From: a virus
Reading direction: 5' to 3' (one strand)
IMG/VR virus record: IMGVR_UViG_3300030116_005659
Coordinates: 1-57,976 of that record
DNA length: 57,976 bases
Below are positions 12,855-50,386 of this stretch, one piece after another (within the stretch, counting starts at the first letter, position 1; each line of letters begins with the position of its first letter). Under the pieces are notes generated by a model. It did not search any database and had not been told where the DNA came from. It saw only the letters and a program-made list of their open reading frames with translations. Position numbers and translations under genes: made by a program.

Positions 12855-13082
12855 ATGTTGAAAAGTAATTCAAAAAAATTTAAAATGTGGGTAAAAAAGA
12901 TTGATGATATTCTAAAATCTGTCCCAAAAACTGATTACGAAGGTCAAGATATTAGAAATTGTCCAGAGTTTGATATTTATGTAGCCAGATTGTATGATTG
13001 TAATATTGATACAGTACAAGCTACTGAATTGATACACGATGAGTTGGAAACAAGACAGGATTTAGAGGATATTTTCAAATGA
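12855..13082 (+). CDS. Small acidic protein, unknown function
   Basis: 75 aa. The first ten residues are basic (MLKSNSKKFK), the rest is helical and acidic (FDIYVARLYDCNIDTVQATELIHDELETRQDLEDIF). There is no Shine-Dalgarno sequence before the ATG, which lies 8 bases after a -10 box. The stop overlaps the start of the PAPS-reductase-like gene (ATGA), so the two are translationally coupled. I do not recognise a family. Confidence 0.65.
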   Translation: MLKSNSKKFKMWVKKIDDILKSVPKTDYEGQDIRNCPEFDIYVARLYDCNIDTVQATELIHDELETRQDLEDIFK

Positions 13083-13924
13083 GTGACCCCTTTTTACTAG
13101 AAACACCTGGTGTTATAAATTTTTCTGGTGGTAGAACATCAGGTTATATGTTACGAAAGATATTAGATGCTTTTGATAACAAGCTGCCGGACGACTTACC
13201 AGTTTGTTTTGCTAACACCGGAAAAGAAATGCCACAAACACTTGATTTTGTACATGATTGCTCGACAAAATGGAACGTTCCTATCGTATGGATGGAGTGG
13301 GATAATGAATCAGAAAATCATTTAAAAATTGTTGATTATGAAACAGCATCAAGAGATGGTGAACCTTACGAAAAATTAATAGATAGTAAAAGATTTTTAC
13401 CTAACCCTGTTACAAGATATTGCACGTCTTATTTAAAGATCAAAACTATGCGTGCCTATTGCATGTTTCATTTGGGTTTTGAACATTGGATGTCTTATGT
13501 TGGTCTTAGATATGATGAGCCACATAGGGTAGCTAGACTGTCTAATCGTAATAAAAAAGAAAGATGGGAAACAGAAGCACCGCTACACGACGCACGGAAA
13601 ACAGTTCAAGATGTTTTTGACTTTTGGAAAGACAACGATTTTGATTTACGTTTACCAAACATTGGTGGTAAAACACCACAAGGTAATTGTGATCTATGTT
13701 TTTTAAAAGGCGCTAACACAATAAGAAATATAATGAAGTCAGATCCTAAATTAGCTGATTGGTGGATCGCTCAAGAAAGTAAAAAGATGGGCACTGGTAA
13801 TGATCGTGCTGCATACTTTCGTAAGGACAGACCAAGCTACGCTAAGTTATTACAAAACACCAAGGATCAATTAGAACTATTTGAATTTGACCAGGCTACT
13901 GACACCTGCTTTTGTCATGATTAG
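13079..13924 (+). CDS. PAPS-reductase-like PP-loop (adenine nucleotide alpha hydrolase) protein
   Basis: 281 aa. The N terminus has the PP-loop SGGRTSGYML (residues about 16-25), then ANTGKEMPQTLDFV and VGLRYDEPHRVARL, the pattern of the phosphoadenylylsulfate reductase family that also includes DndC-type enzymes. A CDLCFLKG cysteine pair (near residue 206) and a C-terminal CFC suggest a metal or Fe-S site. Phage members are common, but their substrate is generally unknown; thio-modification of DNA or RNA, or sulfur assimilation, are options. No DndD/E or cysteine desulfurase gene is present in the window. It is in an operon with a ribbon-helix-helix candidate. Confidence 0.82.
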   Translation: MSDPFLLETPGVINFSGGRTSGYMLRKILDAFDNKLPDDLPVCFANTGKEMPQTLDFVHDCSTKWNVPIVWMEWDNESENHLKIVDYETASRDGEPYEKLIDSKRFLPNPVTRYCTSYLKIKTMRAYCMFHLGFEHWMSYVGLRYDEPHRVARLSNRNKKERWETEAPLHDARKTVQDVFDFWKDNDFDLRLPNIGGKTPQGNCDLCFLKGANTIRNIMKSDPKLADWWIAQESKKMGTGNDRAAYFRKDRPSYAKLLQNTKDQLELFEFDQATDTCFCHD

Positions 13925-24782: not shown

Positions 24783-25091
24783 ATGGCAATAGATAAAAAA
24801 AGAATAAGAGATTCAGTTAAAGAACAAATGGCACTTGATATGCTTGGTGATGCCAACCCATTTGAATCAGGAGAAGATGTTATAACTGAACTTGATCCGC
24901 CTGATTTAATAGCTGACATTGAAGCAAAAGATGCAGCTAGAAAAAGAGCAGATATGCAAAAAGAACGTATGTTTACAATGCCTGATCCTGATAATATAAG
25001 TTCAAGAATCAGGGGTATGGGAAAAAAAGAAGGTGACTTTGTTGAAGTACCTGTTAAACTTGCAAGAACAAAAAAAACTAGGTTGTACTAA
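24783..25091 (+). CDS. Small protein upstream of portal
   Basis: 102 aa, acidic in the first half (NPFESGEDVITELDPPDLIADIEAKD), basic at the end (VPVKLARTKKTRLY). It overlaps the portal start by one base (TAATG). No recognised family; the position suggests a role in portal or head assembly. Confidence 0.6.
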   Translation: MAIDKKRIRDSVKEQMALDMLGDANPFESGEDVITELDPPDLIADIEAKDAARKRADMQKERMFTMPDPDNISSRIRGMGKKEGDFVEVPVKLARTKKTRLY

Positions 25092-27424
25092 TGGATGAAG
25101 AAGATAATTTAGACCAGCAGGTCGAACTTGAACCTGTTGAAGTTGAGATTCAAGAGCCAAGTGATGAAATGGAAATGGCTGCGGAAGAGGCTCAAGCAGA
25201 ACAAGAATTTTATAAAAATATTGCTGAAGATTTAGATGAAAGAATTTTAGGTTCTCTAGCTTCACAATTAATTACAGATTATAGAAAAGATAAAGAATCA
25301 AGAAGTGATTGGGAAAAAGGGTATACCTCTGGACTTGATCTACTTGGTTTTAAATATAGTGATGAGTCACAACCTTTCAGAGGTGCTTCTAGTGTAACAC
25401 ATCCTTTACTTGCTGAATCTGTAACACAGTTTCAAGCTCAGGCTTACAAAGAATTATTACCTTCTGAGGGTCCTGTGAACACACAAATTGTTGGTGAAAG
25501 AAATCCACAAAGAGAAGAACAGGCAGGACGTATAAAAGAATTTATGAATTATATGTTGATGGAACAGATGGAGGAATACACTCCTGAGTTTGATCAACTT
25601 TTATTTTATTTACCTTTAGCAGGATCAGCTTTTAAAAAAGTTTATTATGATGAAATTATGCAGCGTGCTGTAAGTAAGTTTGTACCTGCTGAAGATTTGA
25701 TTGTTCCTTATTATGCATCTGATTTAAAAGATGCAGAGAGAGTAACGCACGTAATTAAAATGTCAGAGAATGACATTCTAAAAAAACAAAAAAGCGGTTT
25801 TTACAGAGATGTTAAAATATTACCATCTCAAATGGACGATGATGTCCAAAACAAGTACGAAGAGTTAGAAGGTGTTTCTAAACAGGGTGACTCTGATTAT
25901 CAGTTTAATATTTTAGAAATGCATGTAGATTTAGACCCTGAGGATCTTGCTGGAGAGAGTGACGACAAAAATGTTAAAGTTCCATACATCGTAACAATTG
26001 ATGAGGGCTCACATGAAATATTAAGTATCTATAGAAACTATGCCCCTAATGATGAATTGTTTAGAAGAAAAGATTTTTTTGTTCATTATAAATTTTTACC
26101 GGGACTAGGCTTCTACGGTTTTGGTCTGATACACATGATTGGTGGTTTGAGCAAAACTGCGACAGCGGCATTGCGACAATTGTTGGATGCAGGTACTCTA
26201 AGTAACTTGCCAGCTGGCTTTAAATCGAGAGGATTAAGAATTAGGGACGATGAACAACCTTTTCAACCTGGTGAATTTAGGGATGTTGATGCACCAGGCG
26301 GAAACATTAAGGATCAATTTCAAATTTTACCATTTAAAGAGCCAAGTGGCACACTTTTTCAACTTTTAGGCTTTGTTGTACAAGCAGGACAGCGTTTTGC
26401 AGCGATTGCAGACATGCAAATTGGTGAAGATAAGCAAAATAGGGCTGTCGGAACTACTTTAGCTCTCTTGGAACGTGGCTCAAGGGTCATGAGTGCCATT
26501 CACAAGCGTCTGTATTATGCGATGCGTCAAGAATTTAGGCTTTTACATAATGTTTTTGCTACATATTTGCCTCCAATTTACCCTTACGCCGTATATGGAG
26601 GCGATAGACTTGTAAAATTAGCTGATTTTACTGATGAAGTTGATGTAATTCCTGTTGCAGACCCTAATGTTTTCTCTTTGTCACAAAGAATTACACTCGC
26701 TAGTCAACAATTACAGATTGCTCAGTCAAATCCACAGATGCATGACATGAGAGAGGCTTATAGACGTGTATATGAAGCACTTGGAACCAAACAAATTGAT
26801 ACTTTGTTAAAACCGGAACCTGCACCAACACCAAAGGACCCGGCTATCGAGAATTTAGAGGCACTTCAGATGAAAGTGCCAAGAGCTTTTCCATTTCAAA
26901 ACCATGATGCTCATATTTTAGCTCATGCTAACTTTATAAAGTCAAGAATGGTGCAGGCTAACCCGATGGTATATGCTTTATTACAAGGACATATATCTGA
27001 GCATATATCATACAAAGCACGCGCTGTTGTAATGGCTATGGTCATGGCTGATGAAAACTTACAAAAGCTAAAAGAGGAGAACATGGAAGCTTTCCAAATG
27101 GAAACAGAATCTTTAATTGCTCTACAAATTGCAGCTTTAACAAAAGAATTAGTTGATGCTGAAGGCGGTAGTCAAGATCCACTTGTTGCGTTGAAATCAA
27201 GAGAATTAGATTTAAAAGCTATGGATATGCAAAGAAAAGCAGCTGAAACTCAACAAGATCAACAAAGAAAACTGTATGAGTTTGAACAACGTATTGATTT
27301 AGATAAAATGAAAAGAGAGGATGCTGAAGTTGCATCACAAGAAAGAATTAGAGTAGCTGATGAGAAACTAGACCTAACTGAAAGAAAAATAGAAAATGAG
27401 GAAAATAAAAATGAAAAAACTTAA
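25091..27424 (+). CDS. Portal protein (P22-like, large)
   Basis: 777 aa. The N terminus is acidic, then SRSDWEKGYTSGLDLLGFKY, FRGASSVTHPLLAESVTQFQAQAYKELLP and FDQLLFYLPLAGSAFKKVYYD, the pattern of large podovirus portals. FYGFGLIHMIGGLSKTATAALRQLLDAG is the stem/wing region and the C-terminal 110 residues are a coiled coil (LYEFEQRIDLDKMKREDAEVA) that would form the barrel. The dodecamer is the DNA channel and docking site for the terminase. Size is like P22 gp1 rather than T7 gp8. Confidence 0.93.
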   Translation: MDEEDNLDQQVELEPVEVEIQEPSDEMEMAAEEAQAEQEFYKNIAEDLDERILGSLASQLITDYRKDKESRSDWEKGYTSGLDLLGFKYSDESQPFRGASSVTHPLLAESVTQFQAQAYKELLPSEGPVNTQIVGERNPQREEQAGRIKEFMNYMLMEQMEEYTPEFDQLLFYLPLAGSAFKKVYYDEIMQRAVSKFVPAEDLIVPYYASDLKDAERVTHVIKMSENDILKKQKSGFYRDVKILPSQMDDDVQNKYEELEGVSKQGDSDYQFNILEMHVDLDPEDLAGESDDKNVKVPYIVTIDEGSHEILSIYRNYAPNDELFRRKDFFVHYKFLPGLGFYGFGLIHMIGGLSKTATAALRQLLDAGTLSNLPAGFKSRGLRIRDDEQPFQPGEFRDVDAPGGNIKDQFQILPFKEPSGTLFQLLGFVVQAGQRFAAIADMQIGEDKQNRAVGTTLALLERGSRVMSAIHKRLYYAMRQEFRLLHNVFATYLPPIYPYAVYGGDRLVKLADFTDEVDVIPVADPNVFSLSQRITLASQQLQIAQSNPQMHDMREAYRRVYEALGTKQIDTLLKPEPAPTPKDPAIENLEALQMKVPRAFPFQNHDAHILAHANFIKSRMVQANPMVYALLQGHISEHISYKARAVVMAMVMADENLQKLKEENMEAFQMETESLIALQIAALTKELVDAEGGSQDPLVALKSRELDLKAMDMQRKAAETQQDQQRKLYEFEQRIDLDKMKREDAEVASQERIRVADEKLDLTERKIENEENKNEKT

Positions 27425-28441: not shown

Positions 28442-28810
28442 ATGTTTCAAGCCATATTAGGTCCAGTCGCCAAGTTAGCTTCAACTTGGATCGAAGGACG
28501 TCAAAAAAAAGCTGAACTTAAATCAAAAGTTGAGTTAACTAAACTAGAAGCAACTAAGACAAGAATAGAGAAAGAAGGAACTTGGGACGAAAAACAAGCA
28601 GATGCTGCAGCGGATTCCTGGAAAGACGAAGCCTGGACCCTTGCGTTCATAGCCATAATTTTTGCCTCCTTCGTACCTTCTTTGCAACCGTACATGAAAG
28701 AAGGATTTGTTTTTCTAAAAAACGATTGTCCTGAATGGCTCAGCTGGGGAATTTTAGCTTCGATTGCAGGATCATTCGGGTTGAAGAGTATTGCCAAGTT
28801 CAAAAAATAG
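28442..28810 (+). CDS. Holin, GTA-holin/3TM-like
   Basis: 122 aa. The N-terminal 60 residues are an amphipathic helix (GRQKKAELKSKVELTKLEATKTRIEKE). DSWKDEAWTLAFIAIIFASFVP then SWGILASIAGSFGLKSIAKFKK gives two or three transmembrane segments. The SWKDE...F.P...P.W.....I.a..FG.K pattern resembles the three-segment holins described for gene transfer agents and marine phages. It lies 2 bases after the methyltransferase stop, with AAGGAG upstream. It is far from the endolysin gene (34583). Confidence 0.7.
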   Translation: MFQAILGPVAKLASTWIEGRQKKAELKSKVELTKLEATKTRIEKEGTWDEKQADAAADSWKDEAWTLAFIAIIFASFVPSLQPYMKEGFVFLKNDCPEWLSWGILASIAGSFGLKSIAKFKK

Positions 28811-28818
28811 ATTAAAAT
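28791..28818 (+). promoter_or_regulatory. Possible promoter for the PqqA-like gene
   Basis: TTGCCA (28791-28796), 16-bp spacer, TAAAAT (28813-28818), straddling the end of the holin gene. It would give a leader of about 50 bases before the ATG at 28876. Confidence 0.35.
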
Positions 28819-28875
28819 ATGTTTAGTGGACTGCGGTCACGAGGACAACCAGCACTTTAATTTTAGGAGATAATT

Positions 28876-28950
28876 ATGTGGTCTAAACCTGTAATTACAG
28901 AAATTTCTGTTGGTCTTGAGATTAACAGTTATGCCTGTGCTGAAAAATAA
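28876..28950 (+). CDS. pqqA: PqqA-like PQQ precursor peptide
   Basis: 24-aa peptide, with TAGGAG 7-8 bases before the ATG. It starts MWSKPVITEIS and continues VGLEINSY, ending ACAEK. The central Glu15-x3-Tyr19 is the pair that PqqE crosslinks to build pyrroloquinoline quinone. The N-terminal MW-[S/K]-P and the SVGLE core match PqqA, and the order IVSEICVGMEVTSY recalled from Methylobacterium PqqA aligns nearly position by position. No PqqB, C, D or E is present, so maturation would rely on the host. A hairpin follows directly, so it may be a short, abundant transcript. Length and motif make chance resemblance unlikely, but the peptide is short. Confidence 0.8.
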   Translation: MWSKPVITEISVGLEINSYACAEK

Positions 28951-28976
28951 AGTGATGGGGACCTAGTCCCCTCACT
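28951..28976 (+). terminator. Hairpin after the PqqA-like gene
   Basis: AGTGA-T-GGGGAC (28951-28962) pairs with GTCCCC-TCACT (28966-28976), one bulged T and a 3-base loop. The stem starts at the base after the stop codon. Only ATTT follows, so it may terminate weakly or protect the mRNA end. Confidence 0.6.
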
Positions 28977-28991
28977 ATTTAGGAAAGTAAT

Positions 28992-29114
28992 ATGTTATTA
29001 ACTAAAAAATTAATTAAATTTAACAATCTTATTGTAAAAATACCTTCTGCTACAAAAAGGGTTTGGGACTTATCTGAAAACAGGTGGGGTTACAAACTTG
29101 TCAGAAATATTTAA
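28992..29114 (+). CDS. Small basic peptide gene
   Basis: 40 aa from an ATG with AGGAAAG upstream: a helical basic sequence (LLTKKLIKFNNLIVKI, then KRVWDLSENRWGYKLV). No recognised family. It is too small to assign; its interest is its position directly after the PqqA-like gene and its hairpin. Confidence 0.45.
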   Translation: MLLTKKLIKFNNLIVKIPSATKRVWDLSENRWGYKLVRNI

Positions 29115-29188
29115 GATAAAAGATTGTAGTGGTGAAAGGTTTCCAAAAAAAAGACGTATACTAGAGTATAAGTCACCAGTAGTATGTT

Positions 29189-29311
29189 ATGGTAAAAAGG
29201 TTTCACAAAGTCGAAATAATAATTGCAAAAAAGACAAAGAGAAGGTATAACAAAAAGGGACTTACACATAGAAAGAAACTTGGACCGAAGTCTCATTTAA
29301 GACATGCTTGA
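29189..29311 (+). CDS. Possible small basic protein, start uncertain
   Basis: 40 aa (MVKRFHKVEIIIAKK, then KKGLTHRKKLGPKSHLRHA) with a basic tail and no good ribosome site. In another frame, from a TTG at about 29096, there is an open stretch containing FPKKRRILEYKSPVVCYGKKV that overlaps this one. The pair could be one basic protein split by a frameshift, or only one may be real. The end overlaps the gene at 29304. Confidence 0.35.
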   Translation: MVKRFHKVEIIIAKKTKRRYNKKGLTHRKKLGPKSHLRHA

Positions 29312-49271: not shown

Positions 49272-49460
49272 ATGACAAAAGTAATACATTGTGAATCAAA
49301 AACTAAGATCACAAACAAAAGAACTGGTAAAGAATATGCATCAGAAAAAGAAGCCAAATTCGATGTCGAGGACAAACTGTCTGCAACAACTGAAGAAGAC
49401 ATTCAAAGGGACGTTACAATTATCGTTCCGCAGTTGGATATTGAAGGAGGAACAGATTGA
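49272..49460 (+). CDS. Small charged protein before the glycosyltransferases
   Basis: 62 aa. MTKVIHCESKTKITNKRTGKEYASEKEAKFDVEDKLSATTEEDIQRDVTII. Charged, soluble, and its end carries the ribosome site AAGGAGG for the next gene. The 81-bp gap before it (49191-49271) is AT-rich with a TATAAT near 49233. No family is recognised. Confidence 0.6.
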   Translation: MTKVIHCESKTKITNKRTGKEYASEKEAKFDVEDKLSATTEEDIQRDVTIIVPQLDIEGGTD

Positions 49461-50386
49461 ATCCGTTGGGAGGAACTGAACTTCAACACAACTTTTTACA
49501 TAAACATGTTAAAAAAGAGTTGTTAGAAGGTGTTCAAATCTGTTTATCTGTTCCTGAAAAAACACCGCTATCTAAAGATAAAGTAAATATCTTATGGCAA
49601 AAAAATGCCCCAAACCAACCTAATATTGAGCCTTGGTTTAAAAATAAAGAAAACCACACAAAGTACGATTGGTATGTATTTAATTCACATTGGAATTACG
49701 AACAGTTTAGAAAAAGTTTTAATCTACCAACTGACAGGTGTCATGTAATCAAAAATGGTGTGACAAGTTTTCCAAAAACAAATAATTTTAACGAAGGAGA
49801 TCGTTTAAGAATTATACATCATAACACGCCCTGGAGAGGTTTAAATGTATTATTGGGTGCTATGCAGTATCTTGAAGGTGAAAACATTGAGCTTGATGTA
49901 TATAGTAGTTGTGAAATATATGGAGATGAGTTTAAAAAAGATAATGACCATAATTATCAAGAGTTGTATGATCAAGCTAGAAAGTTGCCGAATGTAAATT
50001 ATATTGGTTATAGACCAAATGATTTTATATTGAGTAAATTACCAAATTATCACCTGTATGTGTATCCAAGTATATGGGAAGAAACGTCCTGTATTTCTTT
50101 GTTAGAGTCTATGGCTGCTGGCTTATACTGTGTCGTGACTAATTACGGTGCTATTTACGAAACAGGGTCAGAGTTTCCTATATATATCAACTATGAAACA
50201 AATTTTAACAATCTTGCTTTTCAATTTGCAGAAGCTATTAAAGTAGCACGAGACACGCTCCACGAACCTATGATAAGAAAACATTTGTCTTTACAACAAG
50301 CCTTTGTAAAAAGATTTTATTGTTGGGAAAAGAAGGCACATGAATGGACTAATTTTCTTACAGGTGTTTTAAATGCAAAACAATAA
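49457..50386 (+). CDS. Glycosyltransferase, GT-B (GT4-like)
   Basis: 309 aa from a TTG (49457) that overlaps the previous stop and has AAGGAGG 6 bases upstream, so the rare start is credible. WYVFNSHWNYEQFRKSF, RLRIIHHNTPWRGLNVLLGAM, YPSIWEETSCISLLESMAAGLYCVVTNYGA is the GT4 donor site with the E-x7-E pattern (EETSCISLLESMAAG). It would transfer a sugar, perhaps to phage or host surface or DNA. Coupled to the next gene. Confidence 0.82.
   Translation: MNPLGGTELQHNFLHKHVKKELLEGVQICLSVPEKTPLSKDKVNILWQKNAPNQPNIEPWFKNKENHTKYDWYVFNSHWNYEQFRKSFNLPTDRCHVIKNGVTSFPKTNNFNEGDRLRIIHHNTPWRGLNVLLGAMQYLEGENIELDVYSSCEIYGDEFKKDNDHNYQELYDQARKLPNVNYIGYRPNDFILSKLPNYHLYVYPSIWEETSCISLLESMAAGLYCVVTNYGAIYETGSEFPIYINYETNFNNLAFQFAEAIKVARDTLHEPMIRKHLSLQQAFVKRFYCWEKKAHEWTNFLTGVLNAKQ

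What the first reader, a model, noticed from the sequence alone, without database searches (positions are those of the whole stretch)
28876..28950. A pqqA-like gene in a phage genome without any other pqq gene
The 24-aa product has the Glu-x3-Tyr pair, MW start and VGLE core of PqqA, the peptide that is turned into the redox cofactor PQQ. It has a proper ribosome site, a candidate promoter (28791-28818) and a hairpin after the stop. Established knowledge: PqqA is the substrate of PqqE/PqqD, and PQQ serves methanol and other dehydrogenases. Inference: the phage may boost host PQQ production in infected methylotrophic or alcohol-using cells, or the peptide may have another use. A pqqA gene alone in a phage seems unusual to me.
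Basis: partly seen in the sequence, partly recalled or inferred. Interest (0 to 1): 0.9.

Follow-up and report, generated by a model that had tools for sequence, protein, structure and literature searches.

The report
Phages carry a stand-alone PQQ-precursor gene
This ocean virus carries a tiny gene for the peptide that bacteria turn into the redox helper PQQ, and many other water viruses, including several grown in the laboratory, carry the same overlooked gene, so viruses may be feeding the alcohol-burning metabolism of the cells they infect.

Summary
Window 28876-28950 encodes a PqqA peptide over the curated cut-offs of PF08042 and TIGR02107; no PqqB-E or PQQ dehydrogenase is in the window. 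It is no oddity: 308 IMG/VR loci (283 distinct contexts) with such an ORF were seen. Nine isolated phages of methylotrophs (P19250A, MEP301, Venkman, MEP401, MEP402, four Melnitz) carry it, unannotated or under a reverse-strand ORF in the six examined. Scans that left the Glu and Tyr codons open found both kept in every copy; selection is purifying. The window's subtype also has a new, covarying RNA hairpin in front. A scan for that hairpin alone gave 85 distinct contexts, 82 followed by pqqA. By PqqA type the likely hosts are HIMB59 (AEGEAN-169) alphaproteobacteria, which show one PqqE gene and up to five pqqA copies. Best reading: the phage supplies the consumable substrate of the host's PQQ enzymes. 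That function is inferred, not shown. An earlier metagenomic report of a phage pqqA exists (Lake Baikal, PMC7678222).

The parts
28876..28950 (+). pqqA: 24-aa PQQ precursor peptide MWSKPVITEISVGLEINSYACAEK
   Evidence: PF08042 and TIGR02107 over cut-off; E and Y kept in relatives; pN/pS far below 1
28865..28869 (+). ribosome binding site AGGAG
   Evidence: read; core site in 227 of 236 viral copies against 1 of 236 in the control stretch
28823..28858 (+). structured leader RNA: hairpin (pairs 28825-28856) of 4+3+3 pairs with a GA bulge and a CG/AAC internal loop
   Evidence: 36-sequence alignment, 8 of 10 pairs with changes on both sides; same structure by RNAalifold; anchor-only test on loci not fetched through the leader: 50 of 50 with all five free pairs; single hit in the window, E 2.4e-12
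28813..28818 (+). -10-like hexamer TAAAAT, 6 nt before the first pair of the leader hairpin
   Evidence: enriched near this distance in relatives, 44 of 78 against 3 of 78
28951..28976 (+). hairpin directly after the stop codon
   Evidence: -16.7 kcal/mol, z -3.35; z<-2 in 112 of 198 viral and 75 of 104 bacterial pqqA 3' flanks against 9 of 189 controls
28442..28810 (+). upstream neighbour, phrog_2524 family (unknown function), used to find relatives
25091..27424 (+). portal protein (phrog_1216); used for the phage tree
29491..29925 (+). GroES-like co-chaperonin downstream; pqqA lies between portal and GroES in 44 of 49 loci that show both

Best explanation
The window is a phage that carries a self-contained pqqA cassette: leader hairpin, ribosome site, 24-codon gene, 3' hairpin. 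SHOWN by comparison: it encodes a real, selected PqqA peptide with the two residues that become PQQ; the phages examined carry this gene without the rest of the pathway; bacteria with the matching PqqA type have a complete pqqABCDE operon next to a PQQ alcohol dehydrogenase gene, and most have extra pqqA copies. INFERRED: during infection the cassette makes a short mRNA and much PqqA peptide, which host PqqD/PqqE and PqqB/C turn into PQQ. More PQQ keeps periplasmic XoxF-type dehydrogenases loaded and electrons flowing during virion production, much as cyanophages supply the short-lived D1 protein.
For: Profiles (ten further peptides, nine viral and one HIMB59, all over cut-off). E and Y kept at all alpha (144, of which 120 came from the scan with open codons) and beta (120) sites. 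pN/pS 0.21 and 0.08. Lone pqqA: 0 of 237 viral loci with other pqq genes in the stretch held; PqqE over cut-off in 0 of 51 whole viral records, the window and 50 long ones that I chose. PqqA in phages isolated on methylotrophs (six ORFs read and intact). One of 51 records also holds a PQQ alcohol dehydrogenase. PqqA type follows phage clade: 2 changes among three types on the portal tree, the minimum. HIMB59 order: PqqA in 31 of 32 genomes, 79 matches, at least 2 in 25; PqqE over cut-off in 21 of 32, one place each; PQQ alcohol dehydrogenase over cut-off in 20 of 32; in L448 PqqB, C, D, E, the dehydrogenase and a MoxJ-type protein all pass their NCBIfam cut-offs beside pqqA. Methylophilaceae keep 3-12 pqqA copies but, with one exception, one pqqBCDE set (PMC4109929, passages). 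PMC7936290 cites a G. oxydans study in which single genes were overexpressed to raise PQQ, pqqA ranking second (passages).
Against: No expression or biochemistry could be tested. The host of this phage is inferred: cultured relatives HTVC023P and HTVC027P infect SAR11 strain HTCC1062 and show no pqqA in the 14-kb stretches examined. Close relatives lack the cassette cleanly (L019, L022, L013), so it is not essential. The study cited ranks pqqB, not pqqA, first. Only MEP301 and Venkman among the six isolates read have a strong 3' hairpin, and none of them has the leader, so the cassette anatomy is not shared by all carriers.
Confidence: 0.75

Rival explanations
1. Decoy: phage PqqA occupies PqqD/PqqE to lower PQQ or divert a radical-SAM enzyme, for example to slow the host or to stop a competitor.
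For: It would also need only the peptide and tight conservation of the recognition part.
Against: A decoy need not keep the Glu and Tyr that become PQQ, yet all 144 alpha and 120 beta sites keep both. One record pairs pqqA with a full PQQ dehydrogenase and a formate-dehydrogenase-like subunit, which points to use of PQQ.
Confidence: 0.08
2. Precursor of another modified peptide: the gene is a PqqA relative processed by some other enzyme into a signal or toxin.
For: It stands alone; a second RiPP model (StsA) matches one variant far below its cut-off.
Against: TIGR02107 is an equivalog model and all eleven peptides tested pass it. Phage peptides match the PqqA subtype of bacteria that hold pqqBCDE. 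No PqqE-like enzyme over cut-off in 51 records (two weak radical-SAM matches).
Confidence: 0.05
3. Not viral: host DNA in mis-sorted contigs.
For: Two 'Acinetobacter phage' records are hit; the one examined holds pqqB, C and D beside pqqA and looks bacterial.
Against: The window has portal, terminase, capsid, DNA polymerase and GroES. Synteny between portal and GroES in 44 of 49 loci. Isolated phages carry the gene. No pqqBCDE in 237 loci.
Confidence: 0.01
4. Neutral passenger cassette that spreads by recombination without helping the phage.
For: Clean presence and absence between near relatives; several gains or losses on the tree.
Against: Purifying selection, kept ribosome sites, a dedicated leader RNA in the window's subtype and occurrence in several phage groups.
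Confidence: 0.11

Closest known systems
Lake Baikal virus VP_266 pqqA (PMC7678222; passages read)
   Same: A phage-borne pqqA reported as an auxiliary metabolic gene
   Different: There beside a phage methanol dehydrogenase and linked to methylotrophs; here alone, of the HIMB59 PqqA type, between portal and GroES, with a leader RNA
Bacterial PqqA (PF08042, TIGR02107), including extra copies in Methylophilaceae (PMC4109929, passages) and HIMB59 genomes
   Same: Same peptide family, Glu and Tyr, frequent 3' hairpin
   Different: In a virus, with a leader hairpin that was not found before any of the 79 HIMB59 pqqA matches
Cyanophage psbA (recalled)
   Same: Phage supplies one fast-consumed part of a host energy system
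   Different: A peptide substrate of a cofactor pathway, not a photosystem protein
Viral pqqA, pqqE and pqqD listed in reservoir sediments (PMC13188868, passages)
   Same: pqq genes called in viral contigs
   Different: The passages read give a list only, no sequence or gene context for pqqA

Membership tests
PqqA (PF08042 / TIGR02107) | Profile score over curated cut-off | tested here: met
   29.3 against 21.1 bits and 36.4 against 20 bits
PqqA (PF08042 / TIGR02107) | Glu-x3-Tyr pair that forms PQQ, kept in relatives | tested here: met
   all 144 alpha and 120 beta sites; 120 of each come from scans with the two codons open
PqqA (PF08042 / TIGR02107) | Selected as a peptide, with a ribosome site | tested here: met
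   ribosome sites 227 of 236; pN/pS 0.21 and 0.08; translation itself not tested
PqqA (PF08042 / TIGR02107) | Substrate of PqqE with PqqD | not testable with these tools
   needs biochemistry
pqq operon member | pqqBCDE next to it | tested here: not met
   none in the window or in the stretches held of 237 viral loci; so it is pqqA but not an operon. Solitary pqqA also occurs in bacteria
Phage auxiliary metabolic gene | Host-type metabolic gene inside a genuine viral genome | tested here: met
   structural genes; isolates
Phage auxiliary metabolic gene | Changes host metabolism during infection | not testable with these tools
   needs infection experiments
Known RNA families (Rfam 15) for the leader | Match to a described family | tested here: not met
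   28600-29200: two chance-level matches, both far below gathering scores

The most novel reading that the evidence does not exclude
Phages of abundant, mostly uncultured PQQ-using marine bacteria share a portable pqqA module run by its own new cis-acting RNA, a 36-nt 5' hairpin with a conserved CG/AAC internal loop. It is a dedicated genetic switch or stabiliser with which viruses control the host's PQQ supply. Since one HIMB59 genome has the same RNA in front of rpoH, it may respond to a host factor tied to heat shock or stress.
Probability: 0.5. Interest if true: 0.85.

Novelty: new variant of a known kind. Interest (0 to 1): 0.75.

Why it matters
It would mean that viruses of many aquatic PQQ-users, including phages already in culture, supply a cofactor precursor and so steer oxidation of methanol and other alcohols in the sea and in lakes. 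The gene is so short that it is easily missed: in five of the six isolate regions examined there is no feature under it, and in the Melnitz record the only feature is a reverse-strand ORF. Cultured pairs such as Venkman with H5P1 make the idea directly testable. The leader RNA is a structured element with strong covariation and an almost exclusive link to one viral gene.

Tried and rejected
PHROGs has no family for the three peptides tried and no PDB sequence matches the window peptide. tblastn of two alpha-type peptides against INPHARED found nothing; the beta type did. I considered misbinned host DNA: likely for the Acinetobacter records (one of two examined), not for the rest. I considered that the 3' hairpin is a terminator: not for the window, although some relatives show a T-run behind theirs; by type z<-2 holds in 49 of 106 alpha and 56 of 85 beta flanks. 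A fold of the window leader alone is no better than shuffles (z 0.63); the case for the leader rests on covariation. The 36 leader sequences of alignment A1 were picked from 51 by a script that demanded pairing in the middle and inner helices; 15 were left out (13 near-copies, L420 cut by a contig end, L522 a chance hit). So only the outer helix is independent, and two rows (L140, L373) are misaligned there by their shorter bulge. The test was repeated without the pairing demand. The frequency (75 of 83 INSY) is inflated by loci fetched through the leader itself; one search leaves them out (48 of 56 INSY, 2 of 70 INCY, 0 of 138 others). (83 of 87) likewise mixed in loci fetched through pqqA; one search counts only loci of the leader scan (82 of 85). 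A scan of 385 alphaproteobacterial genomes with the leader model gave one genome with two weak hits that look like coding sequence, judged chance (that mode scored only 17 candidates per genome). Whether other Methylophilales phages named (MEP431-434 and others) carry pqqA was not tested. Three rows marked 'none_seen' in the portal tree (L141, L357, L407) do hold pqqA: L141 is, and all three come from pattern scans that require the PqqA core; so at most 11 of 14 lack it.

Searches for prior print: (one library of openly licensed PMC papers). Papers seen as passages only: PMC7678222, PMC11118758, PMC13188868, PMC9004378, PMC9602057, PMC4109929, PMC7936290, PMC9851590, PMC4869267, PMC10848612, PMC10308909, PMC10734472, PMC8024684, PMC8163748. 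The papers on P19250A, MEP401 and MEP402 were not read. Recalled, from no call: the psbA comparison, that PqqA is consumed one for one, that default gene callers drop very short genes, and that 5' hairpins can stabilise mRNA.

Full report
OBSERVATION. The 75-nt gene at 28876-28950 encodes MWSKPVITEISVGLEINSYACAEK and passes the curated cut-offs of PF08042 (29.3 against 21.1 bits) and TIGR02107 (36.4 against 20 bits). The record is an IMG/VR virus of 57,976 bases with one PqqA match. Its genes are those of a tailed phage: terminase, portal, capsid, family A DNA polymerase, helicases, GroES. Its portal is nearest, among the phages searched, to Pelagibacter phage HTVC023P (65% identity).

HOW WIDESPREAD. 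Starting from the neighbouring gene (28442-28810), not from pqqA, 80 viral loci were kept; 24 of the 80 hold pqqA next to it (whose count of 26 also has the window's own locus and one false ORF; some loci end too early to tell). With the other scans, 308 viral loci with a PqqA ORF were seen, in 283 distinct contexts (a few loci come from one contig). Three main types appear: INSYACAE., INCYACAE. and the beta type ..TEMRFGFEVTMYVMNK.

ISOLATED PHAGES. tblastn with a beta-type peptide hit 12 phage records: Methylophilaceae phage P19250A (100%), MEP301 and Venkman (91%), MEP401 and MEP402 (83%), four Melnitz records (73%), all nine with Methylophilales or Methylophilaceae hosts, an environmental podovirus (96%), and two 'Acinetobacter phage' records. 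In P19250A, MEP301, Venkman, MEP401 and MEP402 no feature is annotated at the place; in the one Melnitz record opened the feature is a hypothetical ORF on the other strand. These six ORFs and the podovirus one are intact and have a purine-rich ribosome-site-like stretch upstream; the other three Melnitz records were seen only as hits. Only MEP301 and Venkman of the six show a strong 3' hairpin (-16.9 and -14.7 kcal/mol), and none has the leader described below. The text of the MEP301 and Venkman papers has no 'pqq'; the Melnitz paper has PQQ only in its growth medium. The Acinetobacter record examined holds pqqB, C and D and looks bacterial.

SELECTION. pN/pS is 0.21 over 96 distinct alpha genes and 0.08 over 107 distinct beta genes; in the core codons 0.10 and 0.016. 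The search patterns fixed part of the core at the amino-acid level, so these ratios are biased low. The set found through the neighbour gene was retrieved without that bias (24 loci, 8 distinct genes with the window) and gives pS 0.240, pN 0.010, although its copies too were recognised by a core motif.

ALONE, BY RULE. None of 237 viral loci with pqqA (1.92 Mb held, one of them the window's own) holds PqqB, C, D, E, XoxF or XoxJ at E<=1e-6, while 50 of 108 bacterial pqqA loci have pqqB, C or E nearby. The query proteins, from L448, pass the NCBIfam cut-offs for PqqB, PqqC, PqqD, PqqE, the PQQ methanol/ethanol dehydrogenase family and a MoxJ-type protein. Over 51 whole viral records (the window and 50 long ones that I chose) PqqE over cut-off is in 0 (two weak radical-SAM matches) and a PQQ alcohol dehydrogenase is in 1. 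That record, G054, carries the dehydrogenase directly followed by a molybdopterin oxidoreductase that looks like a formate dehydrogenase subunit, with Hsp70, Cpn60 and ribonucleotide reductase.

POSITION AND LINEAGE. pqqA lies between portal and GroES in 44 of 49 loci that show both; the five exceptions are beta-type loci. On a quick portal tree of 73 rows the three PqqA types need only 2 changes, the minimum, so type follows phage clade; presence itself was gained or lost several times (at most 11 rows lack it after correction; some branches are long). L013 and L004 show clean absence and presence of the cassette between the same flanks.

HOST. The INSYACAEK type belongs to the order of G003, whose record title names HIMB59-MED-G10. 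Of 13 genomes reached through bacterial pqqA loci, seven were reached through this type; six of them fall in that order, and the seventh (L213, a 'Maricaulis' assembly) holds it on a contig of this phage group. In the order 31 of 32 genomes have PqqA (79 matches; 25 genomes have two to five), 21 have PqqE over cut-off at one place each, and 20 have a PQQ alcohol dehydrogenase over cut-off; many of these genomes are incomplete. L448 shows pqqABCDE next to the dehydrogenase; further copies stand alone elsewhere in the loci read. One of the 32 genomes contains a phage contig of the window's group, without pqqA on it (portal 56-60%, capsid 73%). Two HIMB59 papers searched do not mention PQQ. The host remains an inference.

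CASSETTE ANATOMY. Ribosome sites: 227 of 236 against 1 of 236. A stable hairpin behind the stop: z<-2 in 112 of 198 viral and 75 of 104 bacterial copies against 9 of 189 controls; the window's is -16.7 kcal/mol, z -3.35.

A NEW LEADER RNA. Window 28823-28858 holds GUGGACUGCGGUC-ACGAG-GACAACCAGCAC. They give 85 distinct contexts, and pqqA starts 19-32 nt behind 82; among loci first seen in that scan it is 60 of 63. The three others are one contig that ends inside pqqA and two GC-rich chance matches. In 36 aligned sequences 8 of 10 pairs change on both sides with pairing kept, 96.9% of cells pair, and the covariation score is 0.328 against 0.142 in shuffles and at most 0.066 when slid; RNAalifold finds the same structure. 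Because those sequences were picked partly by pairing, the test was repeated with only GCG and AACC as anchors: 77 of 77 have all five free pairs standard, or 50 of 50 when loci fetched through the leader are left out. A natural control: seven bacterial pqqA upstream regions of 112 show the same anchors. Two, L213 and L257, have all five pairs and match the model; the other five have 2 or 3 of five pairs and no significant model match. L213 is a contig of this phage group; L257 shows only a weak polymerase match to the window, so its phage nature is likely but not shown. Without the loci fetched through it, the leader precedes 48 of 56 INSY, 2 of 70 INCY and 0 of 138 other viral pqqA. In the 32 HIMB59 genomes it occurs once, in front of an rpoH gene (TIGR02392 over cut-off), and before none of the 79 pqqA matches (in some genomes only 150 candidates were scored). 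It has no match in Rfam. A -10-like box sits 3-10 nt before it in 44 of 78 contexts against 3 of 78 in a control stretch and 8.6 expected from shuffles, so the transcript probably starts at the hairpin. Loci with the element fall into four groups linked by shared genes. Its role (stability, translation control, ligand or protein binding) is open; the folding energy of the single window sequence is not remarkable.

MECHANISM. Bacteria multiply pqqA alone: Methylophilaceae have 3-12 copies and, with one exception, one pqqBCDE set (PMC4109929); the methanol-using production strain of PMC9851590 has five. PMC7936290 cites single-gene overexpression in G. [quoted passage not shown] A phage that supplies pqqA alone fits this logic. 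Conversion of the phage peptide and an effect on PQQ are not shown.

NOVELTY. One earlier report of a phage pqqA, with a methanol dehydrogenase, is PMC7678222; PMC13188868 lists pqqA, pqqE and pqqD among viral genes. In the searches made I found no report of pqqA in cultured methylotroph phages, of HIMB59-type phage pqqA, or of the leader RNA; most subscription journals are not in that library. Filed as a new variant of a known kind: a phage auxiliary gene that supplies a RiPP-type precursor alone.

Noticed in passing
L628 573-1466 (-) and its upstream part (G014:C2:10944-10981): The leader RNA of phage pqqA also stands in front of an rpoH gene in one of 32 HIMB59 genomes.
   Followed up: partly
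L543 9990-14784 (record G054, 72 kb): A viral record with pqqA also carries a PQQ alcohol dehydrogenase directly followed by a formate-dehydrogenase-like molybdopterin oxidoreductase, with Hsp70 and Cpn60.
   Followed up: partly
L016, L031, L033, L034, directly after pqqA: In several relatives a gene with a signal-peptide-like start (MGALxLPLL..) follows pqqA and begins inside the hairpin.
   Followed up: no
L449-L453, L455-L457 (HIMB59 genomes): HIMB59 genomes carry extra solitary pqqA copies, often identical peptides, away from the pqq operon.
   Followed up: partly
L213, L257: Contigs filed under Maricaulis and Flavobacteriaceae assemblies: L213 is a phage contig of the window's group; L257 carries the phage-type leader and pqqA and is probably phage.
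   Followed up: partly
L542 (CAKLQF020000010.1): A record named Acinetobacter phage MD-2021a carries pqqB, C and D and polyphosphate kinase; it looks like a bacterial contig.
   Followed up: no
window 13079-13924 and 49457-50386: A PAPS-reductase-like gene and a glycosyltransferase gene, other possible host-modifying genes.
   Followed up: no
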